DNA from: Saprospiraceae bacterium | GTDB lineage: Bacteria; Bacteroidota; Bacteroidia; Chitinophagales; Saprospiraceae | Length of the DNA stretch: 53,932 nt | Assembly (NCBI GenBank): GCA_022842725.1 | Contig: JALHOZ010000032.1 | Location: 1 to 53,932, forward strand | Direction: 5' to 3' | Part shown: one piece after another, positions 1 through 12,613 of the stretch | Numbering within the stretch: position 1 is the first letter of the stretch | How the letters are laid out: each line of letters begins with the position of its first letter | Notes under the pieces: model-generated | The model's database searches: none | What the model was told of the DNA's origin: nothing | Seen by the model: the letters and a program-made list of their open reading frames with translations, nothing else | Position numbers and translations under genes: made by a program

Positions 1-119
1 GGTAGAAAAAATTTAAATTTTTAACCCGTCAGATCATCCTCAAAGGTGGTTCACTTTGCTCCGGAATAGGTGGCTCAGTTTGGACCGGAATCGATGGTTC
101 AGTTTGACCGGAATATGCA
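1..119. mobile_element. End of an IS21-family-type insertion sequence (cut by window edge)
   Basis: The first 119 bases carry three tandem imperfect copies of a GGTTCAGTTTG-ACCGGAAT motif and stop at a CA dinucleotide (118-119). Multiple internal repeats near a TG...CA terminus are known for IS21-family (istA/istB) elements. Immediately inside lies an open coding frame that has lost its 5' end, as expected if the element inserted into that gene. No transposase can be read here because the element continues beyond the window. Family assignment rests on the repeat pattern only. Confidence 0.6.
45..116. repeat. Three 24-bp tandem terminal repeats of the IS end
   Basis: Copies begin near 45, 69 and 93. 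Each has the form G(A/G)TGG(T/C)TCA(C/G)TTTG followed by an optional spacer base or two and CCGGAAT. The period is about 24 bp. Such repeats at IS21-type ends are generally taken to be transposase binding sites; that role is inferred here. Confidence 0.65.
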
Positions 120-851
120 GAGGGGTATATTTCTACCAAGAAAAACATCCAATCTATCTTTCCTTTTAGGAAAAACATTTGGAGCCAAGATGTTATTTTT
201 AAATTACTTTCTAATCTAAATTTAGAGAAAATATTAGCAATCTCAAAAAATATTGATTTTGGTATCCACCAAGAAAAAGTGATAAAAACTATTACCAAAA
301 AAGTTGATACAAATTTTACTCTTGACCAAAAACTGAATATTTTGTTAGATACTAATGTAATAGCATTTAATCATTTGGTATTCGACTTTCTAAAATCTAC
401 TGATTATCCTTTGGCAAAAGAGACTTCTTTTCCTTTATTAGATAATGATGCAGTATTGGTAAGAGATGATATTTTTAAAATATTAGAAGAAAGTGGTGTT
501 GGAGTACCTTCCTATTATAATAAAATTGATTTTAAAGTTAATGACAAAAAAGGGCAATATGCTCGAAGTCGTTCTGGATGCTTTTTCTGTTTTTTTCAAC
601 AGAAAATCGAATGGGTTTGGTTGTATGAACAACATCCTGATCAATTTATAAAGGCAATGGAATATGAAAAGGATGGATTTACTTGGGGACAAGGTGAAAG
701 TTTGGAAGAATTAATTAAACCAGAAAGATTGGCTAAAATCAAAGAAGAATTTATACTCAGGCGAGAGAATAAATCAAAAATAAATTCACCTTTTCTTACA
801 GACATATTGGAGGATGCTGAAGAAGAAGGTTGTGCAGCTTGCTTTATTTAA
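120..851 (+). pseudogene. PAPS-reductase / DndC-like protein, 5' end removed by the IS
   Basis: The frame is open from inside the IS end (the last in-frame stop is at 105-107) to 851, and the sequence upstream of the first usable start (GTG at 279) is clearly coding, so the gene is 5'-truncated. The C-terminal half has the hallmark of PAPS-reductase-family ATP pyrophosphatases: an RSGC-x2-C segment near 565-590, then a Glu-Trp and a HPDQF-type helix, and a second CxxC at the very end (near 829-845). Four Cys in two CxxC pairs suit an Fe-S cluster. DndC of DNA phosphorothioation systems belongs to this family; the neighbouring DndD-like ATPase favours that reading. The PP-loop half that binds ATP is missing, so activity from this copy is unlikely. 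A sulfur-assimilation enzyme is less likely given the neighbours. Confidence 0.65.
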
Positions 852-868
852 TTGACTAAATTCAAATT

Positions 869-1618
869 ATGTTTTTTTCTAGAATAAATATAATCGTAAT
901 AATTGTTGTAGTTTCTGTTTTATTTATTAGCTTACTCCTTATAATAAACACAACAATCAGTAATTTATTTGCAGCTGTATTTGGCTCGATAGTTGCAAGT
1001 ATGGCAGTTTCCTCTTTTTACAATGAAGAATTGCATAAAGCAATGGATAAATACAATAAAATTGGGCTAGTAAATTATTTTGACAATTTTGAAGATGCAC
1101 ATAATCTTATTAAGGAGAAAATATCTAAAGCTAAATTAGTAGAGATTTTTGTGATGTATGGAGATTCATTTGTTAACACTTCAACAATTTCTATCAAAGC
1201 ATTACTATCCAAAGAAAATTCAAAATTTCGTTATTTTATGTATAGTTTAGAAAACAATTTCATTAATTCTTATGGTAATCATTGGGGTGAAGTTGAAGAA
1301 AATACAAAGTACAATAAAGAAGGTCTAAAATCAAAAATCGAAAATGTAAAAAAAGACTTAAGATTATTATTAAAAACTAAACATCAAACCTGTGAATTTG
1401 AATTTTATGAAATTCAAAGTGCACCAATGTCATATTCGTTCTATAGGATGGATAATGAATTATTTTTTGTGCCAAGTAAAAACATAAGATCTAAAGCAAT
1501 AAAACCTGCAGTTTTTCAATTTAAAATAACAGCTTTTGAAAACTCAATGTTCAACAAACTAATTTCTGAGTTAAGCTTAATGATTGAAAATAAAGAAGTA
1601 ATCAAAGTTGATTTATGA
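869..1618 (+). CDS. Membrane-anchored protein of unknown function in the defence-like cluster
   Basis: A 249-residue protein. Residues about 7-50 are two closely spaced hydrophobic stretches, predicted to be one helical hairpin or two transmembrane helices; the remainder is soluble, Lys- and Glu-rich and probably cytoplasmic. The soluble part alternates strands and helices, and the segments VEIFVMYGDSF and YRMDNELFFVP resemble the core strands of PLD-like nuclease or effector folds, but no HKD motif is visible, so this is only a suggestion. It begins 17 bases after the DndC-like gene and its stop overlaps the start of the exonuclease gene (ATGA), so it is translated with its neighbours. N-terminal membrane anchors plus a soluble domain are common in defence effectors. 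Function unknown. Confidence 0.75.
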   Translation: MFFSRINIIVIIVVVSVLFISLLLIINTTISNLFAAVFGSIVASMAVSSFYNEELHKAMDKYNKIGLVNYFDNFEDAHNLIKEKISKAKLVEIFVMYGDSFVNTSTISIKALLSKENSKFRYFMYSLENNFINSYGNHWGEVEENTKYNKEGLKSKIENVKKDLRLLLKTKHQTCEFEFYEIQSAPMSYSFYRMDNELFFVPSKNIRSKAIKPAVFQFKITAFENSMFNKLISELSLMIENKEVIKVDL

Positions 1619-2163
1619 TTTGTTTTATTGATTTTGAAACCACAGGTATTGATGTATTTAGAGACGAACCAATTGATTTTGGTGCTGTTTTAGTTGATTT
1701 TGATTGGACGATTATTAAAGAATTTTCATCTACGATTTCAATTAATAAAAGCGTTTATTTAACAAAAAAATCCTTTAATATTCATAACATTTCTAAAGAG
1801 ATATTGGAAAAATCTCCTAACCAAAAGGAAGTAATTTCTAAATTTTTTAATCAATTTGGGACAGATTTTAGGCTGGGTGGTTGGAATACCAGTTTTGATG
1901 TATCTTTCTTACGTAAAATATGCCATAAAAACGGAATGATGGTTCAGTATAATAGAATTAATCATCGTCATATTGATGCTCAATCTTTAGGATTTCTAGC
2001 TTGTGAATTAGGCTTGGTAAAAAGCGGTATAAGCTCGTTAAATGACTGGATAAATTATTTCGGTCTTATAAGAAGTAATAATCATTCAGCTATTGAGGAT
2101 GCGAAATTAACGTTTCAGGTATATATTGAATTATTAAACCTCTTTAAATCTAGTATTAAATAA
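1615..2163 (+). CDS. DnaQ/DEDD-family 3'-5' exonuclease
   Basis: A 182-residue single-domain exonuclease. All three DEDD motifs are readable: FIDFETTG at residues 4-11 (Exo I, Asp and Glu), GGWNTSFDVSFL near residues 86-97 (Exo II, Asp) and HSAIEDA near residues 160-166 (Exo III, the His-x4-Asp that defines the DEDDh subgroup). The family removes nucleotides from 3' ends of DNA or RNA using two metal ions. It is shorter than polymerase III epsilon subunits that carry extra domains. The start overlaps the preceding stop by four bases, indicating translational coupling. In this setting it more likely processes or degrades foreign DNA or RNA than proofreads replication; that role is inferred. 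Confidence 0.85.
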   Translation: MICFIDFETTGIDVFRDEPIDFGAVLVDFDWTIIKEFSSTISINKSVYLTKKSFNIHNISKEILEKSPNQKEVISKFFNQFGTDFRLGGWNTSFDVSFLRKICHKNGMMVQYNRINHRHIDAQSLGFLACELGLVKSGISSLNDWINYFGLIRSNNHSAIEDAKLTFQVYIELLNLFKSSIK

Positions 2164-2289
2164 ATGGAAAATAATCAAAAAATATATCTAACCCAGAGCT
2201 TTATCAAAACCATAGACTTTAGAGTACTTGATTTAATAGCGTTTTTTTTGACAATTTACATTTGTCAGTTAAGCTTAATTCATGCTTAG
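2164..2289 (+). CDS. Short ORF of 41 codons, possibly a gene remnant
   Basis: An ATG follows directly after the exonuclease stop codon and opens a frame of 41 codons (starting MENNQKIYLTQSF) ending in TAG at 2287-2289. The N-terminal half looks like the beginning of a soluble protein, while the rest is hydrophobic. It may be a real small protein translated by re-initiation or the 5' stump of a lost gene. No family recognised. Confidence 0.25.
   Translation: MENNQKIYLTQSFIKTIDFRVLDLIAFFLTIYICQLSLIHA
2249..2267. promoter_or_regulatory. Inverted repeat upstream of the helicase gene
   Basis: TGACAA (2249-2254) and TTGTCA (2262-2267) form a perfect 6-bp inverted repeat with a 7-bp spacer. It lies about 60 bases before the helicase start, in the only sizeable gap of the cluster. 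It could be an operator, for example for the small HTH protein at the end of the cluster, which is an inference. Confidence 0.35.
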
Positions 2290-2326
2290 AGTCAAATTAT
2301 TAATGAAAAAGTAGTTTCGTACAAAT

Positions 2327-4534
2327 ATGCTTAAAGATTCCGATTGGTCAGAAGATAGAGATTACAAAACTGGTTCAGAAAATGAACCCATACAATTCTA
2401 TTTAGAGGGATTAGCTAATAGTAATGAGTTTAGTTTGTTATTGGGTTATTTTAGTTCATCAGCAATCAATCTGCTTTCAATTGGTTTTGCTACTTTTATA
2501 AGCAAGGGTGGTAGAATGAAAATGGTGATCAATCATTTGTTATCTTCAAGGGATAAAGATGCTATTTTGAGAGCAGAGGAAGGAAGTCAGCAAGATTTGC
2601 AGGTTTTTGACTTAACTGACCCTAGCTTTTTGCATAGGTATTTAGATGATTACAGCAATCATTTCTTTGATTGTTTAACTTATTTGATTATAGAGAAGCG
2701 CATAGAAATAAAGATAGTAAAGCCTAAAAATGGCAAAGGAATAGCACATTACAAATCAGGTGTTTTTGGTGATGGAGTGGATCATGTTGGTTATAAAGCA
2801 TCATGTAATTTTACACTTCATGGATTATCAGAAAATTTGGAAGAACTTGAAGCATTCCTTAGTTGGGAAAATGGAAGGTCAAACAAGTTAATTAAAAAGC
2901 AGCTCAAACTAATAGATGATTATTTCAAAGAAAAAGATGAAGATGTAGAGTACATACCTGTTGATGAAATAGAAGTGGTTCTCAAAGATAGATTTGGAAT
3001 GAAAGACATCAATGAGTTGTTGGTTCAAGAAGAACAACTTCTTAGAAAGAAACAGAGTTTAATATCAAACCCCAAACTCAAAAAAACAATTACCAAGCTT
3101 TTTAGTGAAATAGAAATTATAAGAAGAACACCAAAATTCCCTTATTCAGAAGGTCCGAGAGAGTATCAGATTAATGCTTACAACAGTTGGGTGGCAAATA
3201 ATTACAAAGGAATGTTCGCAATGGCAACAGGGACAGGAAAAACGATAACTTCCCTCAACTGCCTGCTGAACGAATATATGAAAACAGGAATTTACAGAGC
3301 TATTATTACGGTTCCAACAACAGCTTTGGTTGAGCAATGGAAAAAAGAATGTGCAAAATTCAATTTTAAAAACGTCATTACAGTCAGTTCAAAAGAGAAT
3401 TGGGATAAGAATCTTGCGTTTTTCAATACGGCTTCAAAACTGATTGATACTTCGTATATCGTTATTGTAACTTATGCTTCATTACCAAGGCCTAAGTTTC
3501 AAAGCTACTTTACTCAACTTCCCAAAGACACTATTTTAATTGCAGATGAAACGCACAATTTAGGTTCGCAAGGACTTTTAAGATTGTTGCCAAACATACA
3601 CCTTGAAAAACGAATTGGCTTATCTGCAACTCCAAACAGGAAATTTGATGAAGCAGGGAATCAAGCCATTCAAGAGTTTTTCAATGATGAGCCACCATAC
3701 ATTGTTTCCTATTCAATGGAGGAAGCCTTAAAAATTGGATGGCTTTGTAATTACACTTACTATCCGCATATAGTAAAGCTCACAGACCCAGAAATGGAAA
3801 AGTACAAGGAGCTTTCTCTTCAACTGTTGCGAATGGGCTTATTTGACAAAGAAACAGGAAATTTCAGAAGTACTCCTGAAATTGAAAAGAAACTCCTTGA
3901 AAGAAAACGAATTATTCACAAAGCAGCCAATAAATTAGAAGCTTTCAAAGCAATTCTAAGAAGTGAATTTGATAAACGAAAGAGCCTGAAATATACATTG
4001 ATTTATGTGCCTGAGGGGTTTGAGGCAAATTATGAAGATGAAGATTTCAGTACTGAAACAGAAGATGAAAACAGGTTGATTAACGAATATACAAAAGCAG
4101 TTAGCCAAACAGATGATTCTGTAATGGTGAAACAGTTTACTGCAGATTCTACTAATCGTGAGGAGATCTTAAAAAACTTTGAAGAAAGTAAAATTCACGT
4201 ATTGACCTCTATGAAATGTTTGGATGAAGGTGTTGATGTGCCACGTTCCGAACTAGCCATATTTTGTGCAAGTACTGGTAATCCTAGACAATTTATCCAA
4301 AGAAGAGGCAGAGTTTTGCGATTGCACAAAGATAAAATTCACGCAACCATACACGATTTAGTAGTTGTGCCCGAAGTAGCTGATGAAAGCACCTTTGAAA
4401 TGGAAAAAGGTCTAGTAAAAAAAGAATTAGAACGAGTGGTTGACTTTGCTAATCTGGCAATGAACAAGACCGACACTTACGAAACGCTGAAAAGCATATT
4501 GGACTACTACAACCTAAACCTTAACGATTTATAA
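2327..4534 (+). CDS. PLD-like nuclease domain fused to SF2 DEAD/DEAH-type helicase
   Basis: A 735-residue protein. Residues about 25-190 resemble a phospholipase-D-type nuclease domain, with an HYK segment and a following Asp near residues 140-147 that fit a relaxed HKD motif. An SF2 helicase core follows: Walker A ATGTGKT near residue 300, Walker B-type ADETH near 404, the GLSATPN motif III near 431, a DEGVDVP motif V and QFIQRRGRVLR motif VI near 655. PLD-helicase fusions are known from restriction and defence loci (COG1061-like helicases), where the helicase translocates along DNA and the PLD domain cuts. One HKD copy suggests a dimeric active site. The small gene at 4545 follows by 10 bases. 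The helicase call is firm; nuclease activity is inferred. Confidence 0.85.
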   Translation: MLKDSDWSEDRDYKTGSENEPIQFYLEGLANSNEFSLLLGYFSSSAINLLSIGFATFISKGGRMKMVINHLLSSRDKDAILRAEEGSQQDLQVFDLTDPSFLHRYLDDYSNHFFDCLTYLIIEKRIEIKIVKPKNGKGIAHYKSGVFGDGVDHVGYKASCNFTLHGLSENLEELEAFLSWENGRSNKLIKKQLKLIDDYFKEKDEDVEYIPVDEIEVVLKDRFGMKDINELLVQEEQLLRKKQSLISNPKLKKTITKLFSEIEIIRRTPKFPYSEGPREYQINAYNSWVANNYKGMFAMATGTGKTITSLNCLLNEYMKTGIYRAIITVPTTALVEQWKKECAKFNFKNVITVSSKENWDKNLAFFNTASKLIDTSYIVIVTYASLPRPKFQSYFTQLPKDTILIADETHNLGSQGLLRLLPNIHLEKRIGLSATPNRKFDEAGNQAIQEFFNDEPPYIVSYSMEEALKIGWLCNYTYYPHIVKLTDPEMEKYKELSLQLLRMGLFDKETGNFRSTPEIEKKLLERKRIIHKAANKLEAFKAILRSEFDKRKSLKYTLIYVPEGFEANYEDEDFSTETEDENRLINEYTKAVSQTDDSVMVKQFTADSTNREEILKNFEESKIHVLTSMKCLDEGVDVPRSELAIFCASTGNPRQFIQRRGRVLRLHKDKIHATIHDLVVVPEVADESTFEMEKGLVKKELERVVDFANLAMNKTDTYETLKSILDYYNLNLNDL

Positions 4535-4544
4535 AATTATTATT

Positions 4545-4775
4545 ATGGCAAGAAAAGACGATATACTCAAAAGTTTTTTAACCCACGAGCTACTTGAAAA
4601 CAAGTATGAATTCAATAAAGAAGAATTGCCTTCAACAATAAGAGAAGCACTAAATTCTGATAAACCTATTATTAAAGCAATTGCTTTGATAGTAGAAGGT
4701 TTGGACGGAACTTCACCAGTTACGGATTCGGTATTGCGAAACCAAGTTACTCAATTTTTAAATGAGGCCTTATGA
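4545..4775 (+). CDS. Small hypothetical protein coupled to the DndD-like ATPase
   Basis: A 76-residue, mostly helical, charged protein with no signal or membrane segment. It sits between the helicase and the SMC-like ATPase, and its last codon overlaps the ATPase start (ATG at 4772 within ATGA), which argues for a stoichiometric partner of that ATPase. Its size suggested DndE, but the basic nick-binding sequence typical of DndE is not evident. No family recognised. Confidence 0.7.
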   Translation: MARKDDILKSFLTHELLENKYEFNKEELPSTIREALNSDKPIIKAIALIVEGLDGTSPVTDSVLRNQVTQFLNEAL

Positions 4776-6922
4776 TAATCAGAAAAATACAAATTGACAA
4801 TTACCTCTGTTATTACGATACCAATACTTTTGAATTATCGGAAGGTTTAAACATTATCCTTGGAGAAAATGGAGAAGGAAAAACAAAATTCTTTGAATCA
4901 GTAGATTGGCTTTTCAATGGAGAGAATCGAGAATTAGATATGCTAGTGTCTGCCAAAAAACTGAATGAAACGGAAATTGGTGATAGTTTTCGTGTAAGGG
5001 TTTCAATGATCGTAGAGCAATATGGAGAGAAAAGTATCATCACAAAATCTTTCCTCGCAAAAAAAGAAAAAGCAAATGAATGTTCGACTTCAAGTTTTAT
5101 GATTGAAGGTATCTCTGAAAATAGTTCGGGAGAAAGAACACAAGTTGATGGACAAGCTCTTTTGGACAGAATATTCCCTTTTCAGATTCGGAAATATTCA
5201 ATGTTCAAGGGTGAAGCGGAACTTAATATTTTTGAAAGTGATAGTGCATTAGCAAACCTTATAAATCTATTTTCGGAGGCGAAGCATTATGATAAATACT
5301 CTGAAAAGGGAGCTTTTTTACGAGAGAAAGCAGAAAAAGCAGTAGAAGATTCTTCAAAGCTTGATAAAAAAAATGAAGCTCTTTACAAAAAACTCGAGGC
5401 AGATATTCTTCAATTAGAAAATAAAAAACACGCGTTCAAAGTTCATTTAGACTCCACTGAAAAAGAAATCAAGAAAATTGAAGAAAATTTACAAGATGCT
5501 GAAAGACACGTAAATAATGCAGATGCTTTAGAAACCATAAACAACCGAATTAAGAAAATAGAAAATCAGATTTCGAATTATACAGCAAGGATTGATGAAA
5601 ACTACACTACTTCCCTTTTTGACGAAAATTGGATTCTAGTCAATTTCGAATCATTTCATAAAGAGTTTGCAGCAAAAGTGTCCGCACACAGCAAAACCAG
5701 AAGAGAGCTTCAATCGCAATTTGATGAACAAAAAGGAATCATAAAAGGAGAGAAAAAAGCAAAGGCAGAATTATTAAATAATTCTATTCCGCTTCCTAAT
5801 AACATACCTTCAAAAGCTATTATGGAAGAAATGTTAAATGATGAAATTTGCAAAGTGTGCAATCGTGAAGCTAAAAAGGGTTCTGATGCCTACGAGTTTA
5901 TGATGGAAAGATTGAAAACCTATTTAGAAAGTCAAGTTACAGAAAGTAATGAACCCGATAAAGAAGAACCACTTTTTAAATATGATTATACAAACAGACT
6001 TGATAATTTAAGCATAAGTCACGAAGACAACCTTAAAAATCTCAGATTAATAAGAACCAAAATCAAAGAACTATTTGAATTTAATGATGACCGCAAAAAA
6101 GACATTGAAGAGCTAAATGAACAATTAGAAAAAGAAAAAACAGAAAGAGAAAAAATATTAGGCAATTCAAGTATTGGTGCTGAGAAATTAAGTGATGTAC
6201 TAAAAAATTACAATGCTTGGCAAAGAGACCTTAAAAATCGTAATCAAGACCAAGTGGACTATACAACAAAATTGAAAGGTCTTGAATCTGAGTTAAAAGC
6301 AAAGAAGGAGGAAAAGGACAAAATTGACACAAGTTCAGCTAATTCTTTCTTGATTAAAACAAGAAACATCTTGCGTGACATTGAAACTATTTTTATAGAT
6401 ACCAAGGAGAAGAAATTTGATGAATTTATTGAGAAGCTTCAAACCAAATCAAACAACTTTTTCAAGACCATCAATATTGATGCTTTCACTGGAACAATAG
6501 TTTTTACAAGAAGAAACAAGGTAAATCGTACAATAGTTGAAGTAGAATTGCAAGAAGATGGCAGGACTTTCTATAAGCCAAACCAATCATTATTAACTTC
6601 AATGCACATTTCAATCTTATTTGCAATTTCTGAATTGGCATCAGAAATTAAAGAAGAAAACTTCCCTATGATTTTTGATGCTCCAACTTCATCGTTCGGT
6701 GAAAACAAAACAGCTCAATTTTTGAACCTGATTTATGAAACCGAAAATCAAAAAATTCTTCTAATCAAAGATTTTCTGCACACAGACAAAGCAACAAAAA
6801 CGCTTTCCATTAAAAAAGAATTTGAGAATGTTAGAAGAGACAAAGCATTTTGGGTGAAATTAGAAAGACCTTTTGACCCAAACAACTTGAAAACAATTAA
6901 CTCACAAGTAATTACATTATAA
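4772..6922 (+). CDS. DndD/Rad50-like SMC-type ATPase
   Basis: A 716-residue protein with the split ATPase architecture of Rad50/DndD. Walker A GENGEGKT is at residues 31-38. Long heptad-rich coiled coils run from about 165 to 350 and 400 to 560, separated by a CKVCNREA segment near residue 360 that matches a zinc-hook-like CxxC at the coiled-coil turn. The C-terminal lobe carries a Walker B PMIFDAPTSSFGE near 632-644. The usual SGGE-type signature is replaced by a degenerate NQSLLTS segment. DndD is the ATPase partner in DNA phosphorothioation; related ATPases also act in other defence systems. It overlaps the small gene before it and is 1 base from the next, so the three form a tight unit. 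DndD kinship is likely; the exact family is uncertain. Confidence 0.75.
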   Translation: MIIRKIQIDNYLCYYDTNTFELSEGLNIILGENGEGKTKFFESVDWLFNGENRELDMLVSAKKLNETEIGDSFRVRVSMIVEQYGEKSIITKSFLAKKEKANECSTSSFMIEGISENSSGERTQVDGQALLDRIFPFQIRKYSMFKGEAELNIFESDSALANLINLFSEAKHYDKYSEKGAFLREKAEKAVEDSSKLDKKNEALYKKLEADILQLENKKHAFKVHLDSTEKEIKKIEENLQDAERHVNNADALETINNRIKKIENQISNYTARIDENYTTSLFDENWILVNFESFHKEFAAKVSAHSKTRRELQSQFDEQKGIIKGEKKAKAELLNNSIPLPNNIPSKAIMEEMLNDEICKVCNREAKKGSDAYEFMMERLKTYLESQVTESNEPDKEEPLFKYDYTNRLDNLSISHEDNLKNLRLIRTKIKELFEFNDDRKKDIEELNEQLEKEKTEREKILGNSSIGAEKLSDVLKNYNAWQRDLKNRNQDQVDYTTKLKGLESELKAKKEEKDKIDTSSANSFLIKTRNILRDIETIFIDTKEKKFDEFIEKLQTKSNNFFKTINIDAFTGTIVFTRRNKVNRTIVEVELQEDGRTFYKPNQSLLTSMHISILFAISELASEIKEENFPMIFDAPTSSFGENKTAQFLNLIYETENQKILLIKDFLHTDKATKTLSIKKEFENVRRDKAFWVKLERPFDPNNLKTINSQVITL

Positions 6923-6923
6923 G

Positions 6924-7445
6924 ATGAAGAATTTATTTGAAAAATGGAAAACTAGAATTCCAAAATACAGTGAGACTCATAAAGACTTATTTACTTCACT
7001 TTCTCAAAAGTTTGGTGCAGAAGGTGAGAAGAAAATCAATTTGGGTAAACATTTCAGTACCAACTATGAATTATACACCTATGCTTTTTTCTTAGGACTT
7101 TACAACAATGAATTTGCTCCAATTCCTGACGGAGAAAAGAAAACAGATTTTAGCCACCATATTCAGCACTGGGGTAGCAAGACAACAGTATCAACACGTA
7201 AGGACTTTACCAACTTACAAGAAAATATGTTTATTGCACTTTTAGCAAAAACGGACATTGATCTAGTAGCCCTTGAAAAAGGAGATTTGGATGAAGATGA
7301 TGCGGTAAAATTGTTGATTAAAACAATGGAATCGTACACCAACGGAGGCCTAATTCTGATAAAGGAAAAACTGGAAGAAAACCCAAACTACTTTCTTCAA
7401 CCCACTTCATTTTTGAATATGATTTTAGAAACGGAAAAAGTATAA
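6924..7445 (+). CDS. Hypothetical protein of the DndD-like cluster
   Basis: A 173-residue soluble protein that starts one base after the ATPase stop codon. It contains an aromatic-rich central segment (NYELYTYAFFLGLYNNEF near residues 49-66), a charged SHHIQHWG stretch, and a helical Asp/Glu-rich C-terminal half. No signal peptide, membrane segment or catalytic motif is recognised. The tight spacing suggests a subunit or adaptor of the ATPase/helicase machinery. No family can be named from sequence alone. Confidence 0.7.
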   Translation: MKNLFEKWKTRIPKYSETHKDLFTSLSQKFGAEGEKKINLGKHFSTNYELYTYAFFLGLYNNEFAPIPDGEKKTDFSHHIQHWGSKTTVSTRKDFTNLQENMFIALLAKTDIDLVALEKGDLDEDDAVKLLIKTMESYTNGGLILIKEKLEENPNYFLQPTSFLNMILETEKV

Positions 7446-7455
7446 ATGCCAAAAT

Positions 7456-7647
7456 ATGTCTGAAAATTCTATAAAATATTTAACGAGCAAAGAAGCAAAG
7501 GAAAATCTCAAAATTCAAGATTGTGACTTAGCACATATCAGAAATTCAGGCAATTTACAATATATCAAAAAAGGTAATTCCTATTTGTATTTAATGGAAT
7601 CTATTGACAAGTATAAAAAGGATAAAGAAAAAGAGATCGACAAATAA
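7456..7647 (+). CDS. Small excisionase/MerR-type HTH protein
   Basis: A 63-residue protein beginning YLTSKEAKENLKI, followed by a recognition-helix-like stretch and IKKGNSYLYLMESIDKY. This matches the layout of small winged-HTH domains of the excisionase/HTH_17 type (a SKEAA-like first helix, then a K-G-x-x-Y-L wing). Ten bases separate it from the previous gene, so it is the last gene of the island operon. Possible roles are local transcription control or target-DNA recognition; an excisionase role is also possible for an acquired island. Confidence 0.6.
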   Translation: MSENSIKYLTSKEAKENLKIQDCDLAHIRNSGNLQYIKKGNSYLYLMESIDKYKKDKEKEIDK

Positions 7648-7683: not shown

Positions 7684-7693
7684 CCCCCCCCCC
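7684..7693. repeat. Ten-C homopolymer at the island/chromosome boundary
   Basis: A run of ten C (G on the minus strand) directly abuts and includes the first base of the stop codon of the EnvC-like gene. Such tracts are slippage-prone, but here a length change would not alter a protein. It marks the point where base composition changes from the AT-rich island to the flanking chromosome. Confidence 0.8.
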
Positions 7694-8889
7694 TACTTCC
7701 TAACCAACCATTTTTCGGGGTCTTGTTTGGTTTTGTCTTTCCAGAGTTCGAAGTGGAGTTGGCTTTTGCCATTATCCTCGGCGAGGGTGTAGCCGATGGT
7801 GCTGCCTTTTTTGACTTTGTCGCCCTTGTCTACCGTGACCTCATCAAGTTTTGAGTAGACGGTAAAATAGCTGCCGTGCTGGATAATGAGCATCTTTTTA
7901 TATCCCGGGATTTCTTTGTAGCCGATGACTTCTCCTTCAAATACGCTTTTGACGGTACCCTTGCCATTGATGGTAAAGTCGATGCCGGAGTTGGATATGG
8001 TGACGTTTTTGACCGTAGGGTGGGGCTGATTGCCAAATCTTCCGGTTACAATGGCATTGTTGACCGGCCAGGCGAGTCCTCCCCGGTTATTGGCAAATCC
8101 TGCATTGTCGGTCTCAACAGTTTTGGCTTCTTTGACATCTTTTTTTGCCTTTTCCCTGGCTTTGGCGAGCTCTTCGGTGATGATTTTTTCGATGGCAGCG
8201 TTGAGTTTTTCCCTTTCTTTTTGTTTTTTGGACAGATCACTGGCCAGGGTTTTTTCTTTTAAACCCAACTTTTTGACCAGTTCGTCTTTTTCTTTTTGTT
8301 CTTTGGCCAGGGTGGTCATATTGTTTTTAGTCTGCTCGACCAATGCCCTTTTTTCTTCCTGTATTTTTTTGATCTCCTCATTGCTGGCTTTGATGACATT
8401 GGCATTGGAAGAGATGGACTCCAGCTTTCGTTTGGTAAACTCTTTGATTTGATTGATGTAGAGCCACCTGAGCAGGAGGTTGTTGAGGTTGTTGGATGAG
8501 AGGAGGTAAGACCACTTGGAGTTGCTCATCTTTTTGAGGTAGTGCATCCTCAACATCTGGCTGTACTGATTGACCAGTATGGTTTGTTTTTTGCTTAGGG
8601 AGTCGAGGGTAGCACCGTTGTTTTCCAGTCTTTTTTCCTGGAGGACGACTTCGTACTGGAGGTTTTCGATGAGTTTTTGACGTTGGGAGATCTGTTGCTC
8701 GAGGAGTTTTAGTTTTTCGGCATTGGCCTTTTTTTCTTTTTTGGTAGCCTCGAGACTTTTGTTGGTTTTTTCTATATTTTTAATAATCTCCAGACGTTTG
8801 GACTCCAGATCTTTTCTGTTTTGTGCATGGACGACAGAAAAAGAAAACAGAATACAAAAAATCGTTATATACTTTCTACTCAAATTCAT
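7693..8889 (-). CDS. EnvC-like periplasmic protein: coiled coil plus degenerate M23 (LytM) domain
   Basis: About 398 residues from the chosen ATG at 8889 (MNLSRKY); an upstream in-frame Met would place the hydrophobic signal segment too deep. A cleavable signal peptide ends near HAQ. A long coiled coil covers roughly residues 20-265 and a LytM/M23 domain about 280-395. The metal ligands of active M23 enzymes are not all present: the H-x-GID motif reads NSGID and the HxH reads QLH. This matches EnvC, which activates division amidases rather than cutting peptidoglycan itself. The start lies 14 bases inside the DUF4292 gene, so the genes are translationally coupled. Division or cell-separation factor by family; the partner amidase is not in the window. 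Confidence 0.85.
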   Translation of the reverse strand: MNLSRKYITIFCILFSFSVVHAQNRKDLESKRLEIIKNIEKTNKSLEATKKEKKANAEKLKLLEQQISQRQKLIENLQYEVVLQEKRLENNGATLDSLSKKQTILVNQYSQMLRMHYLKKMSNSKWSYLLSSNNLNNLLLRWLYINQIKEFTKRKLESISSNANVIKASNEEIKKIQEEKRALVEQTKNNMTTLAKEQKEKDELVKKLGLKEKTLASDLSKKQKEREKLNAAIEKIITEELAKAREKAKKDVKEAKTVETDNAGFANNRGGLAWPVNNAIVTGRFGNQPHPTVKNVTISNSGIDFTINGKGTVKSVFEGEVIGYKEIPGYKKMLIIQHGSYFTVYSKLDEVTVDKGDKVKKGSTIGYTLAEDNGKSQLHFELWKDKTKQDPEKWLVRK

Positions 8890-9643
8890 GATAATGCGAA
8901 GGTACAACAAATTTTAATTCCTTGGCAACATCTACTTCCAATTCTGAAAAATCAAGCCGGATGACACCTTCTGTTCCGGGTTTTTCAGGAAAATATATCT
9001 CGCGTATATGGGGTAGTTCGGGCCCGGTGAGCGCCTGTTTATACTCACTAAAAACAATCCTCATGGTTTTGCCGCTGTCGTCACTCACCAGGGCTTTTTG
9101 TACCTGCAACCTGGAGGCGTCGAGCACGTATTCAAAACTCCAGTTTCCGGAGGTAAACGATACTTTATAGTTATCCCCTTCACGGGCGAAGGCAAAGTTT
9201 TGATCTTCCGGCAGGACGATATTGCCGAATATCAATTGTTGTACATCTTCAAAGGTGAGGTCGACACCCGCCATTTCGCTGAGTTTGGTGACCGAACCTC
9301 TTTCATAACCGGACTCCAGACGGTGCAACAAGGTGTAATCCTGCGGTGTGACAAGAAGGCGGAATGCTTCGATCTCAAATTTTTTGATCTGCACCCATAC
9401 GGCACTGTCTCTGAGCATACGGATGACCATGTGAACACTTTGGGATTCGCCGGCGGTGCGGATCTGTGCTGACGCTTTGCCGTGAAACCATTGGAAGTTT
9501 TTATTGTGTTGTTGTAAGGCAGCCCATATCTCATTTTTAGAATGGTCGCGCGCTACAGGAGAGACCAGTTTTTTGGACGATGAACAAGCACTCACCATCA
9601 CGATCAACACAAAAAACAACATAAAACGACCGCTCATGGACAA
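8876..9643 (-). CDS. DUF4292 family lipoprotein
   Basis: A 255-residue protein whose signal peptide ends in a VSAC lipobox at about residues 17-20, giving a lipoprotein. The mature part is predicted to be mostly beta strand and resembles LolA/LolB-like lipid-carrier folds, as noted for DUF4292 proteins. Bacteroidota genomes commonly place this gene between a TPR protein and the EnvC-like M23 gene, exactly as here. It overlaps both neighbours (10 bases upstream, 14 downstream), so it is the middle gene of a compact operon. A role in lipoprotein or envelope biogenesis is inferred; no function is established. Confidence 0.8.
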   Translation of the reverse strand: MSMSGRFMLFFVLIVMVSACSSSKKLVSPVARDHSKNEIWAALQQHNKNFQWFHGKASAQIRTAGESQSVHMVIRMLRDSAVWVQIKKFEIEAFRLLVTPQDYTLLHRLESGYERGSVTKLSEMAGVDLTFEDVQQLIFGNIVLPEDQNFAFAREGDNYKVSFTSGNWSFEYVLDASRLQVQKALVSDDSGKTMRIVFSEYKQALTGPELPHIREIYFPEKPGTEGVIRLDFSELEVDVAKELKFVVPSHYHEFE

Positions 9644-11157
9644 TTTTTTATTTTTTCGACTAATGTTTTTGAATCCGGCATCAGGCTCAATGCTTTTTTA
9701 TAGTTTGTGCAGGCATCCGGTGCCATTCCTTTGGCAGACAACATATCTCCTTTCCATTCATAAGCCATAACTGACTGACCTTTGCTGGAAGAAATGCTGT
9801 TTTCCACCAGATCGAGGGCTTCTTTTTCCTTTCCGGTGGCAAAGGCGATTTTGGATTGTAAGACCAAAACGCGGGTGAGAATGACAGGGTTTTTGCCGGC
9901 TATTAACGTGGCTTCATCCAGCCAGTCTGATGCTTCTTTGTATTTTTTGTTTTCATAGGCCGGTACAGCGGCAAAATAATATGCGATGGCCTGATTGGGA
10001 AAATAATCCATCGCCTCTTTTGCGGTTTCTTCCAGCGTGGTAAACTCCCGGGTATATTCGAGGCTAAACATCAACTGTTCCCAAACCATAAAGTTGTTTT
10101 TGTTGATCTGTAAGGTGCGTTGATACTGCCTTACGGCTTCCACCTCGCGGTGACTGTTCATCAATACATCGCCGTACATAGCGTGGACACGGGCGTCCGA
10201 AGGATGGGTATTGGCCAGGATTTCAGCAAGTTGCAGTACAGCCTGCGCATAAGCGACTTTGGGATTGGAAGCGTGACCTTCCACAAAGGGCAGGAGTTCC
10301 TTTAATTTGGCTTCAGCGGGTACAGAACGGTTTTCCATCAAAGGTTGTAAGGATATCAGGTAGGCGGTTTCATCCGGAATGCCGTTTGATTTTTCCAGAT
10401 TGTCGAGTAATACATCCACATCGTTGGGATCAAGGACCAGAATCTTTTGATTGATGGCCTCAACTTTGTCTTTTTGACCTGCCATCTTGTACACTTCGGC
10501 TGCTTTTTTCAGGTGTTGCAGTTTGGGATTTTTGCGGGACAAAAGTTTTTCGATTTCCGGTATGGCCTTTTCCGGTTTTTGAAGGTCGAGGGCGATGTCA
10601 ATCATTTTGACGGTATTGCTTTCTGAAAAACCAAGTTGGGTTTCTTTATCAACCAATACGGTAAAAGCTTCTGCTTTACGGTTGGATTTGATCAGCAAGT
10701 CAGCGGTGACATCATAATATTTATTCATTTTGGGTTTCAGGGAGATCAGCTTACGGTAGTGTTCGATGGCTTTGTCCAGGCGAACCAGTTCGGTTTGCAC
10801 AAAAGCCATACGTTCGTTATACCAAAAATGATCTTTGTCCAGACCGAGGGCACGTTGGAGTTTTTCTTCGGCTTTGGCATAATTTTTTTGTTCTATATAA
10901 AGCAGTGCCATTTCATAATAGATGACAGCCCTGTTGCGGTGTTCTCTTGCCAGAGAGTCGAGGACAAAATACGCTTTGTCGTAATGTCCTGCTGCTGATT
11001 CCAGTCGGGCAGCGAGGAAGGCATCCTGAATTTTGTTTTCCGACTGCGGTATTTGGACGACTTCCTGAGCCAAAGTATCCGACCCAAAAAACAGCATCCA
11101 TCCGGCAAAAAGGGTTAAAACAAAGCTGTTTTTATTTTTATAACCAAACAATTCCAT
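9634..11157 (-). CDS. Tetratricopeptide-repeat protein, exported
   Basis: A 507-residue protein with an N-terminal basic and hydrophobic signal segment ending near LAQE. Nearly the whole chain is TPR-like helical pairs: recurring A-x-x-x-Y-x-x-A and L-D-P/L-N-K-N type positions are visible from about residue 35 to the end. It is the first gene of the TPR / DUF4292 / EnvC-like operon and overlaps DUF4292 by 10 bases. TPR proteins act as scaffolds; a periplasmic or outer-membrane assembly role is inferred from the context. Confidence 0.8.
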   Translation of the reverse strand: MELFGYKNKNSFVLTLFAGWMLFFGSDTLAQEVVQIPQSENKIQDAFLAARLESAAGHYDKAYFVLDSLAREHRNRAVIYYEMALLYIEQKNYAKAEEKLQRALGLDKDHFWYNERMAFVQTELVRLDKAIEHYRKLISLKPKMNKYYDVTADLLIKSNRKAEAFTVLVDKETQLGFSESNTVKMIDIALDLQKPEKAIPEIEKLLSRKNPKLQHLKKAAEVYKMAGQKDKVEAINQKILVLDPNDVDVLLDNLEKSNGIPDETAYLISLQPLMENRSVPAEAKLKELLPFVEGHASNPKVAYAQAVLQLAEILANTHPSDARVHAMYGDVLMNSHREVEAVRQYQRTLQINKNNFMVWEQLMFSLEYTREFTTLEETAKEAMDYFPNQAIAYYFAAVPAYENKKYKEASDWLDEATLIAGKNPVILTRVLVLQSKIAFATGKEKEALDLVENSISSSKGQSVMAYEWKGDMLSAKGMAPDACTNYKKALSLMPDSKTLVEKIKNCP

Positions 11158-11321
11158 CTTATTTCTTAAAAGCTGATTAAAAAAAGGAAACGGAGCGGGT
11201 TTTTCCGAAGTTGGTAAAGCCGGGCATCCATTCTGCTTAAGATGATGTATAACGAAAATACCCGATGTAATGTTTCATTTTCTGCCGGGAAGAAGTATTG
11301 CTTTTTGGAATGATCACACTA

Positions 11322-12590
11322 TCAAGCTACCACCACTTCAATCATTTCTTTGGGATCGAGGTATTTTTGGGCGCAGGCCAAAACATCAGAAGCACTGGTG
11401 TCCATGACGTCCTGTATCCATTGTGTCAACGAAGAAAACGGAAGACCTGTCAGTGCCAGTGTTTTGGCTACCACGGCGATCTGCAGGGGACCATCGACCA
11501 TGTGCAGAAAATTTCCTGATAAATAATTTTTTACCATGTCCAATTCTTTGCTGCCGACTTTTTTGGAACAAAGTTTTTCCATCTGTACATAGACTTCGCG
11601 GATGGTTTCTTCAATGTTTTCCGCACTCAGTTCTGTGCTTACATAAAAACATCCATCGTACAACATTTGGTCCATTTGGCTGCCGATGTCGTAGGTATAT
11701 CCTTTGTCTTCGCGGATGACACTCATCAGCCGGGAACTGAAATAACCACCCAGGATGGTATTTAATACAAAAAAAGAAGTCTGGTCGGGATGGGTTCTGT
11801 CAAAGAGTCGTCGTCCGATTTTTAAAGAAGCCTGAATGTCGCCGGGGGCTTTTTCAAACCACCGTTCATGGCGCAGGGGTTGGGTACATTCCGGCCGGGA
11901 TTTTTGTACCGTTTGTTTCTGATGTTGACCAAAATTTTGATTGACTTCGCGGATGATTTGTGGTGTGATTTTTCCGCTAAGGAAGATGTACATATTATCC
12001 GAGCCGATATAGTTGGCAAAATGTTTTTTGACATCATCTGTGGTGATGGCCAGATAATCCTCTTCAAAACTGTTGTATCCGTAGGGATGGTGATTGCCAA
12101 AGATAGATTCTGTGATCATCCGGTAAGAGAGCACTTCATTTTTGGTCAGTTCTTCCTTGAGTTTCTGGATATTGACATTCGCAAAACTGTCGAGTTCGTT
12201 TGCCTCAAAGTGCGGAGAAAAATACATACAAGCAAGTGGCTCTATGATGTGGGGCATATATTTTCCCAAAGTATATACGGACGTGTATATAAAATCCATA
12301 TTGGCCGATATTTTCATGCCGGCGCCGTAGAAGTCAAATTTTTCAGCAAAAGTTTCGGCATTCCAGGAGCCGCAACCTTCTTTCATCAGGGAGGCGGTGG
12401 CACGGCTGACCAGTTTTTTGTCCTCCATGGTTTTACCGGCCTTATGGACGATTTCTATTTTGACGATATCCTCTGTACCGGCATTGATGATGACGACGGG
12501 CACGCCGTTATCCAATGTAATGGTTTCTATCGGAGGAATGTCAATAGTTCTTATCCTGACGATGTCAGGCGCAATATGTCTGTTGAGCAT
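11322..12590 (-). CDS. M16 (pitrilysin) family protein lacking the HxxEH motif
   Basis: About 422 residues from ATG at 12590 (MLNRHIAPDI). Upstream in-frame codons overlap the GCS2 gene and look unlike a peptidase N-terminus, so the shorter start is preferred. The fold is recognisable from the LDNGVPVVIINAG opening, the SLMKEGCGSWNAE region and the FLSGKITPQ and LNTILGGYFSSRLMSVIREDKGYTYDIG segments. Where active members have HFLEH, this protein has no His pair, so it should not bind catalytic zinc. Bacteroidota often encode catalytic and non-catalytic M16 partners; no HxxEH partner lies adjacent here. No signal peptide, so a cytoplasmic or unusual location is implied. It follows the GCS2-CBS gene by 23 bases. 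Confidence 0.85.
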   Translation of the reverse strand: MLNRHIAPDIVRIRTIDIPPIETITLDNGVPVVIINAGTEDIVKIEIVHKAGKTMEDKKLVSRATASLMKEGCGSWNAETFAEKFDFYGAGMKISANMDFIYTSVYTLGKYMPHIIEPLACMYFSPHFEANELDSFANVNIQKLKEELTKNEVLSYRMITESIFGNHHPYGYNSFEEDYLAITTDDVKKHFANYIGSDNMYIFLSGKITPQIIREVNQNFGQHQKQTVQKSRPECTQPLRHERWFEKAPGDIQASLKIGRRLFDRTHPDQTSFFVLNTILGGYFSSRLMSVIREDKGYTYDIGSQMDQMLYDGCFYVSTELSAENIEETIREVYVQMEKLCSKKVGSKELDMVKNYLSGNFLHMVDGPLQIAVVAKTLALTGLPFSSLTQWIQDVMDTSASDVLACAQKYLDPKEMIEVVVA

Positions 12591-12613
12591 GTATGTTATT
12601 GGATGCGTAAAAA

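What the first reader, a model, noticed from the sequence alone, without database searches (positions are those of the whole stretch)
120..7647. Candidate undescribed defence cluster related to Dnd sulfur modification
One directional run of genes combines a PAPS-reductase/DndC-like protein, a membrane-anchored unknown, a DnaQ exonuclease, a PLD-SF2 helicase, a 76-residue unknown, a DndD/Rad50-like ATPase with a CxxC hook, a 173-residue unknown and a small HTH protein. DndC and DndD are partners in DNA phosphorothioation, but dndB and dndE are not recognisable, and a PLD-helicase plus exonuclease replaces the known restriction genes. Tight overlaps (ATGA at 1615 and 4772, 1 base at 6922-6924) argue for one machine. 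Standard Dnd, Ssp and Pbe gene sets do not match this set as I read it.
Basis: partly seen in the sequence, partly recalled or inferred. Interest (0 to 1): 0.8.

Follow-up and report, generated by a model that had tools for sequence, protein, structure and literature searches.

The report
Broken Ssp–Pbe DNA sulfur defence locus
The genes are the intact 'attack' half and a decayed scrap of the 'self-marking' half of a bacterial DNA-sulfur defence system; each half is known, but the papers we could search do not describe them together, and related bacteria carry the pair whole, often with a swappable extra gene set.

Summary
The genes exist as described but match known families. 2327-7445 is a pbeABCD cassette (PLD-helicase, small protein, CxxC ATPase, DndE-cognate). 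120-851 is the 3' part of sspD, cut at the contig start by a multicopy IS-like end; 2164-~2315 is a decayed sspA stub. SspB, SspC and the rest of SspD were not found in the assembly (95.5% complete). So the window holds a PbeABCD effector that lost its Ssp (single-strand phosphorothioate) modification module. I found no printed description of an Ssp-Pbe pair; published Pbe partners are Dnd or methylases. Two or three cargo genes often follow sspD, of seven kinds in 12 loci; the window's TM protein (PLD-like fold, no HxK) and DEDDh exonuclease are one kind, seen after sspD in one other genome. Most likely PT marks self DNA, PbeABCD blocks unmarked phage DNA, cargo adds an effector, and the window copy is silent. 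New variant of a known kind.

The parts
1..119 (.). End of a multicopy IS-like element with three 24-base tandem repeats (44-115); it cuts sspD and ends the contig. Family not determined (IS21-like by recall only).
   Evidence: 100% copies at ends of contigs C4, C7, C18, C70; weaker (79%) near the starts of C8, C23, C27; repeat unit
120..851 (+). sspD, 3' fragment (about residues 120-367 of 367); the PP-loop motif (residue 11 in three relatives) is lost
   Evidence: PADLOC SspD 5.4e-35; 79% to L003 SspD residues 120-367; PP-loop position
869..1618 (+). Cargo gene 1: membrane-anchored protein, cytosolic PLD-like fold without HxK motif (pseudo-PLD, inferred)
   Evidence: AlphaFold pLDDT 72 from two sequences; Foldseek to TrmBL2/TrmB, BJ-TSA-9, SauUSI, phosphatidylserine synthase; no HxK; in 2 of 395 phylum genomes, both after sspD
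1615..2163 (+). Cargo gene 2: DEDDh 3'-5' exonuclease
   Evidence: PF00929 7e-21; 49% to the exonuclease beside the TM protein in L080; motif stretches
2164..2315 (+). Decayed stub of sspA (first ~50 codons, one stop; rest deleted)
   Evidence: Peptide score 71 versus maximum 45 in 200 shuffles against L003 SspA; DNA alignment; homology with relatives resumes at 2320-2323
2327..4534 (+). pbeA: PLD/HKD-like domain plus SF2 helicase, open and with motifs
   Evidence: PADLOC PbeA 1100 bits over 1-722/722; TIGR04095 399 bits, below its cut-off of 600; invariant H141, K143, S159, N161, Walker A, DExH, QRRGR in 12 sequences
4545..4775 (+). pbeB: 76-residue protein, by position
   Evidence: No library match to PbeB; found between pbeA and pbeC in 13 of 13 named loci
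4772..6922 (+). pbeC: ABC ATPase with coiled coil and CxxC hook (C360, C363)
   Evidence: PADLOC PbeC 56.1 bits, LmuB 56.1 bits; C360 and C363 invariant in 12 aligned sequences
6924..7445 (+). pbeD: DndE-cognate candidate
   Evidence: TIGR04062 dnd_assoc_4 matches 16 of 16 aligned members at E up to 0.1, best 2e-10, window itself 0.0012 and below cut-off; PADLOC PbeD 5 of 16, best 1.3e-4; DndE 4lrv has the highest TM-score of the 40 PDB hits, but E 5
7456..7647 (+). Small HTH_17 protein, optional companion
   Evidence: PF12728 0.0059, below cut-off; after pbeD in L002 and L003 and in part in L005, of 13 named loci

Best explanation
This is a degraded Ssp-Pbe phosphorothioate (PT) defence locus. 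In intact relatives SspA mobilises sulfur, SspD passes it on, and SspC (AAA+ ATPase) with SspB (nickase/DNA reader) put PT on one DNA strand of the host. PbeC-PbeD scan DNA, PbeA (PLD nuclease plus SF2 helicase) acts on phage DNA that lacks the mark, PbeB regulates, and phage replication stops. A variable cassette directly after sspD adds a second effector; here it is a membrane-anchored pseudo-PLD sensor with a DEDDh exonuclease. In the window sspD is cut by an IS-like element, sspA is a decayed stub, and sspB and sspC are not in the assembly, so this locus cannot make PT. By analogy with the archaeal system, the intact PbeABCD would then be harmless to the host but inactive. Shown here: gene identities, order, loss of the modification half in the assembly, recurrence and linkage. 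Inferred: all biochemical steps and the role of the cargo.
For: Profile matches to SspD, PbeA, PbeC and the PbeD family. SspB 414, SspC 1746, SspD 311 and SspA 555 bits in the intact relative L003. sspBCD-sspA-pbe collinear in 9 of 13 named loci; sspBCD beside pbeA in 9 of 14 further loci, 6 of them convergent. In 394 phylum genomes other than the window's, 9 have PbeA at 280 bits or more, 21 have SspD, 6 have both, in one locus each; 0.48 expected, P 8e-7, ancestry not corrected. SspC and SspB: none in G000, found in 3 of 3 control genomes. IS-like end, sspA stub. Archaeal PbeABCD needs PT, is harmless without it and spares PT-marked virus (PMC6459918 section 8).
Against: PbeB has no profile match, PbeC scores as well to Lamassu LmuB as to PbeC, and PbeA and PbeD fall below the NCBIfam cut-offs; PbeD found no DndE in the PDB by sequence and none with a significant E by fold. 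This is a divergent Pbe clade at best. sspA lies beside pbeA in only 3 of the 9 unnamed Ssp loci, and G167 and G270 have no BLAST match to PbeC. Two strong PbeA genomes of the phylum sample (G021, G184) have DndC in the locus, not SspD. The assembly is 95.5% complete, so sspBC and the 5' part of sspD could lie on a missing contig. I know of no measured activity of an Ssp-Pbe pair.
Confidence: 0.82

Rival explanations
1. An undescribed Dnd-related machine in which all eight genes, TM protein and exonuclease included, act together.
For: Same strand, short gaps and overlaps; TM and exonuclease occur together after sspD in a second genome.
Against: TM and exonuclease have no match in the 13 named relatives at E 1e-4; four genes fit PbeABCD and one SspD; sspD is truncated.
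Confidence: 0.05
2. PbeABCD in the window is still active, paired with another mark (for example a DNA methylase elsewhere in the genome).
For: The four pbe frames are open and dN/dS against relatives is low (PbeA 0.05-0.09, PbeC 0.055-0.10, PbeD 0.04-0.08); PMC6459918 reports methylase genes near 155 of 320 solitary pbeAC.
Against: No other SspD and no DndC in the genome. Low dN/dS is also expected if the loss is recent, and the sspD fragment itself shows no relaxation (0.05-0.06 in the 2 of 8 pairs where it is defined). I did not search the genome for methylases.
Confidence: 0.12
3. The Pbe-like genes are a Lamassu-type (LmuB) system rather than Pbe.
For: The ATPase scores 56 bits to LmuB and 56 to PbeC; L105's scores higher to LmuB (76) than to PbeC (56).
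Against: PbeA 1100 bits full length; PbeD family matches in 16 of 16 members; published pbe order.
Confidence: 0.02
4. TM plus exonuclease is a separate stand-alone defence module that merely landed here.
For: It lies in a slot that holds unrelated cassettes in other loci.
Against: The TM protein is found in 2 of 395 phylum genomes, both after sspD, not in plasmids and not in viral contigs by a pattern search; its divergence (44%, exonuclease 49%) is close to that of PbeA of the same two loci (46%).
Confidence: 0.25

Closest known systems
DndCDEA-PbeABCD (Haloterrigena jeotgali A29; PMC6459918)
   Same: pbeABCD order and sizes (PbeB 66, PbeD 152 residues there; 76 and 173 here), PLD-SF2 PbeA, ATPase PbeC, PT genes beside it
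   Different: Partner in the relatives is Ssp, not Dnd; PbeB unmatched and PbeC, PbeD only weakly matched by profiles; variable cargo; window copy lost its modification genes
SspABCD-SspE and SspABCD-SspFGH (PMC8092258)
   Same: SspA, SspB, SspC, SspD modification module (in relatives)
   Different: Restriction part is PbeABCD; a two-domain GmrSD gene, the DUF262-DUF1524 make-up given for SspE in PMC12707154 (that GmrSD_N and GmrSD_C are these DUFs is recalled), appears only as one kind of cargo (G454)
CxC ABC-ATPase/DndE systems (PMC10853773)
   Same: HKD-SF2 nuclease, small protein, ATPase with a cysteine hook, DndE cognate; 'mix and match' with modification modules
   Different: In the sections and passages I read the partners are Dnd or cytosine methylases, and Ssp is treated as a separate system; the hook here reads CxxC
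Solitary pbeAC (320 of 553 in PMC6459918)
   Same: pbe without intact PT genes beside it
   Different: Here the decay is visible: IS-cut sspD and sspA stub

Membership tests
PbeABCD | PbeA: PLD-like nuclease fused to SF2 helicase | tested here: met
   1100 bits to PADLOC PbeA, full length; motifs; below the cut-off of TIGR04095
PbeABCD | PbeB: small rapidly evolving protein between pbeA and pbeC | tested here: inconclusive
   76-residue gene in the right place in 13 of 13 named loci, no profile match
PbeABCD | PbeC: ABC ATPase with cysteine hook | tested here: met
   PADLOC PbeC 6e-16, tied with LmuB; invariant CxxC in 12 sequences
PbeABCD | PbeD: DndE cognate | tested here: inconclusive
   TIGR04062 matches 16 of 16 members at E up to 0.1, window 0.0012 and below cut-off; PADLOC PbeD 5 of 16; no DndE in the PDB by sequence; DndE best by TM-score but E 5
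PbeABCD | PT-dependent block of phage replication | not testable with these tools
   Needs phage assays
SspABCD modification module (window copy) | Intact sspB, sspC, sspD and a cysteine desulfurase | tested here: not met
   sspD cut, sspB and sspC not found, with positive controls, sspA stub; a housekeeping IscS was not looked for
SspABCD modification module (relatives) | sspB, sspC, sspD, sspA present | tested here: met
   9 of 13 named loci have all four (SspB of L001, L002 cut by the fetched flank); L003 checked by profile; sspD of L005 carries an in-frame stop
Dnd | DndC and DndD in the locus | tested here: not met
   The window fragment matches SspD only; DndD not among the window ATPase's matches; no DndC in the genome
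Lamassu | LmuA effector beside LmuB | tested here: not met
   No LmuA among the matches listed for the eight window proteins (list for PbeA capped at 25)

The most novel reading that the evidence does not exclude
Ssp-Pbe is a further PT defence architecture in which single-strand PT licenses a CxC/DndE-type scanning effector, and the position after sspD is a plug-in bay for interchangeable second effectors (SIR2, GmrSD/SspE-like, HSP90-type ATPase, AAA plus partners, pseudo-PLD plus DEDDh exonuclease) that answer to the same PT status or fire when the Pbe effector is inhibited.
Probability: 0.35. Interest if true: 0.7.

Novelty: new variant of a known kind. Interest (0 to 1): 0.5.

Why it matters
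PMC8092258 reports no SspE or SspFGH beside 83.9% (its figure) of 2,678 sspBCD modules and raises the possibility of more restriction partners; PbeABCD is a candidate, with a gene-cluster link in several Bacteroidota groups and on viral contigs. It joins two modules treated as separate branches (single-strand PT and CxC/DndE effectors) and offers natural tests: intact pairs, convergent pairs, and copies such as this window's where the mark is lost but the effector is kept. The bay after sspD is a place to look for new effectors.

Tried and rejected
Lamassu reading: dropped because PbeA, the PbeD family and gene order point to Pbe. CARF/type III CRISPR reading of the TM protein (PADLOC CARF_TM, E 0.54) and of the 76-residue protein (Csx1, E 0.005): dropped; the TM model is PLD-like and the small gene sits at pbeB. 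IS21 identity of the left repeat: the IstB family gave one hit over cut-off in the genome (C12, 474-residue frame) and one below it (C2), neither at the repeat, so the element is left unnamed. PF01507 as a probe for PP-loop genes in the genome gave nothing, but the window's own sspD piece has no Pfam match either, so that probe says little. PDB sequence searches with PbeD and SspD gave nothing useful. BFVD search with the TM model gave no E of 0.001 or less. The TM protein was sought on plasmids and viral contigs: none; the exonuclease was not sought there. L014 (33% over 62 residues) was dropped as a false relative. G296 is the same contig as L007 (same length and genes) and was not counted twice; L105 and L106 show the same genes at the same positions and were counted once. 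PbeA hits under 280 bits (general helicases; next values 84.6 and 52.3 bits, leaving out a second piece of the G428 gene) were not used; one search scored only 2 candidates per genome and up to five, so PbeA counts are lower bounds. Of 11 viral loci, ten were annotated by script (L105-L114) and L115 was not.
Full report
What is there. The eight reading frames of the finding exist as described. The window is contig C32 of a 4.6 Mb, 87-contig assembly, from its first base. PADLOC names the first gene SspD (5.4e-35, profile 134-251 of 277), the helicase PbeA (1100 bits, full length), the ATPase PbeC (56 bits, LmuB equal) and, very weakly, the 173-residue protein PbeD (E 0.07); the 76-residue protein has no PbeB match. 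NCBIfam gives TIGR04095 (DNA phosphorothioation system restriction enzyme, 399 bits, cut-off 600) and TIGR04062 (dnd_assoc_4, 19 bits, cut-off 74). When 16 PbeD relatives are scanned one by one at E up to 0.1, all 16 match TIGR04062 (best 2e-10) and 5 of 16 match PADLOC PbeD (best 1.3e-4). A PDB search with their profile found no DndE. An AlphaFold model of PbeD (pLDDT 83) has DndE of E. coli B7A as the hit with the highest TM-score of 40 (0.52 by target length, 0.33 by query), but with E 5 and probability 0.11 this is only a hint. The order, PLD-SF2 gene, small gene, ATPase, small gene, and the sizes fit pbeABCD of Haloterrigena jeotgali, where PbeB has 66 and PbeD 152 residues (PMC6459918 section 8). 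PMC10853773 (section 16) describes PbeB as a fast-evolving small protein, PbeC as a CxC-hook ABC ATPase and PbeD as a DndE cognate. In 12 aligned PbeC proteins C360 and C363 are invariant, a CxxC spacing. In 12 PbeA proteins H141, K143, S159, N161 and helicase motifs are invariant.

What is broken. Window 1-119 recurs at 100% at the ends of contigs C4, C7, C18 and C70 and holds three 24-base repeats; similarity to sspD of relatives starts at 119-120. An IS-like element therefore cuts sspD at about codon 120 of 367; the PP-loop lies before that (residue 11 in three relatives looked at). The rest of SspD is not elsewhere in the assembly, nor are SspC and SspB, while the same SspC and SspB queries find them in 3 of 3 control genomes. 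DndC is absent too. Between the exonuclease and pbeA, window 2164 to about 2315 aligns with the first 50 or so codons of sspA of relatives, with one stop; the local score is 71 against a maximum of 45 in 200 shuffles for L003, and 47 to 66 for the other eight, whose shuffle maxima are 37.5 to 44. The rest of sspA is gone. Since IscS can stand in for SspA (PMC8092258, passages), that loss need not matter; the sspD cut must. The four pbe genes are open with low dN/dS against relatives (PbeA 0.05-0.09, PbeB 0.03-0.22, PbeC 0.055-0.10, PbeD 0.04-0.08; Nei-Gojobori, some pairs saturated). The sspD fragment gives 0.05-0.06 in the 2 of 8 pairs not at saturation, so its cut looks recent, whereas the sspA stub is far decayed. 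PMC6459918 reports that pbeABCD without PT is harmless and gives no protection, which fits survival of the cassette after loss of the mark.

The whole system in relatives. A pattern scan of species genomes with the window PbeA, which reaches close relatives only, gave 14 loci, 13 real (62-90% identity) in Cyclobacterium, Confluentibacter, Dyadobacter, Hyunsoonleella, Chryseobacterium and MAGs of Chitinophagales, Chitinophagaceae, Flavobacteriales and Flavobacteriaceae. Nine of 13 have sspB, sspC, sspD, sspA and pbe collinear, though sspD of L005 has an in-frame stop; L003 was confirmed by profiles. Of the other four, L006 and L012 are cut by contig ends (L006 still shows the end of sspA), L013 has an sspD facing pbeD, and L011 (Chryseobacterium R2A-55) has sspB, a stump of sspC, no sspD or sspA, and a PbeA lacking its first codons, a second case of decay. 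By tblastn PbeB is found in 13 of 13 and PbeD in 12 of 13, L012 ending before it. In a drawn sample of 395 phylum genomes 10 reach 280 bits for PbeA, own included; in 199 family genomes 7, own included. Fifteen regions were fetched; one is L007 again, leaving 14. Nine carry sspBCD beside pbeA: convergent in G265, G324, G218, G443, G454, G523, collinear in G473, G167, G270. sspA lies beside pbeA in 3 of these 9 (G265, G324, G218). A PbeC-like ATPase is matched by BLAST in the six convergent loci; G473 ends within pbeA, and the ATPase genes after pbeA in G167 and G270 had no BLAST match. G184 and G021 have DndC (519 and 468 bits) with a DndD/PbeC-type ATPase instead. G355, G428 and G488 show no modification gene in the DNA fetched. 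Excluding the window's genome, 6 of 9 PbeA genomes have SspD against 0.48 expected from 21 SspD genomes in 394 (P 8e-7; shared ancestry not corrected); in each of the 6 the genes are in one locus. Of ten viral loci annotated (of 11), L105/L106 (one element) carry sspBCD-pbeA-pbeC collinear (profiles), with a frame of about 76 residues at the pbeB place and a PbeD-like gene (34% by BLAST; no PADLOC match at 1e-10); L111 carries divergent sspBCD-pbeA-pbeC; the other seven showed no Ssp match.

The bay after sspD. Between sspD and the next core gene lie: an AAA protein with two unknowns (L001, L002, L009, G523); GmrSD_N plus SIR2 (L003); a nucleoside deoxyribosyltransferase-like protein plus an unknown (L007); a two-domain GmrSD protein with an unknown and a related transferase (G454); a double HATPase protein with two unknowns (G324, G443); an unknown with a DndB-like protein (G473); and TM plus exonuclease (window, G218). 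In G265 an unknown and a DndB-like gene follow pbeD on the pbe strand. Seven loci, L004, L005, L008, L010, L013, G167 and G270, show no frame of 80 residues or more there. So 12 loci with a filled bay, the window counted, hold seven kinds. Three kinds recur between distant loci (AAA set, 36-57%; HATPase set, 32-46%; TM plus exonuclease, 44-49%), and the transferase is shared by two kinds (47%). SspE is a DUF262-DUF1524 protein (PMC12707154 passages), so the G454 gene is SspE-like. The TM protein occurs in 2 of 395 phylum genomes. Its model (pLDDT 72, two sequences) matches TrmBL2 at 6e-6, BJ-TSA-9 at 7e-4 and SauUSI at 0.009, and phosphatidylserine synthase and PLD3 at about 0.01-0.02; that these share the PLD fold is recalled. 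It has no HxK. I read it as a membrane-bound, catalytically dead PLD-type sensor coupled to the exonuclease; this is inference.

How it works. Most likely: SspABCD put PT on one strand of host DNA; PbeC-PbeD scan; PbeA acts on unmarked DNA; cargo adds a second effector. PMC6459918 saw no cleavage of virus DNA by archaeal Pbe, PMC10853773 argues for cleavage by the HKD domain; my data do not decide this. In the window the system is probably silent.

What is in print. Nine papers of the library hold both PbeABCD and SspABCD. I looked at passages with 'pbe' or PbeA in all nine and at sections 16 and 17 of PMC10853773; they pair Pbe with Dnd or methylases, or list Pbe, SspE and SspFGH as alternatives, and none of the passages describes an Ssp-Pbe pair. 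Further searches added PMC6459918 (section 8 and passages), PMC8092258 (passages; 'pbe' 0 times), PMC7464106 (passages), PMC11931770 (passages; 'pbe' 0 times) and PMC9252829 (passages). PMC7464106 counts genomes with PT genes, queried with dnd and ssp, plus pbeA-D, without separating them in the passages seen, so such pairs may be among them. Supplementary tables were not open; the Nature Microbiology 2020 SspE paper was not read. PADLOC's PbeA model fits this clade over its full length, so its makers probably had such sequences (inference). Hence: new variant of a known kind, interest 0.5.

Noticed in passing
L011:3048-10060: Chryseobacterium R2A-55: sspC stump of 224 residues, then unrelated genes up to a pbeA that lacks its first codons; a second Ssp-Pbe locus losing its mark.
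   Followed up: partly
L105:4849-15277 (same in L106): Ssp-Pbe locus on a viral (IMG/VR) contig, 45% identical in PbeA; the system may travel on prophage-like elements.
   Followed up: partly
MT835926.1:17-1579 and MT837093.1:6467-7720 (hits H16, H17): Partial PbeA relatives (46% and 51%) at the ends of two unannotated phage records from human faeces.
   Followed up: no
L094:14659-17037: SspE-like two-domain GmrSD gene directly after sspD in a locus that also has PbeABCD: possibly two PT effectors in one locus.
   Followed up: no
L005:8471-8520: In-frame TAA in sspD of a Flavobacteriales MAG; sequencing error or a third broken copy, not resolved.
   Followed up: no
window 120-851 versus 4772-7445: The sspD fragment is far more diverged from relatives at synonymous sites (saturated in 6 of 8 pairs) than pbeC and pbeD (dS 0.40 and 0.16 to the nearest), as if the two halves had different histories.
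   Followed up: no
window 7693-12707, minus strand: Next to the locus lie ordinary-looking genes on the other strand (M23-type peptidase, TPR protein, M16-type peptidase by my reading, not searched).
   Followed up: no
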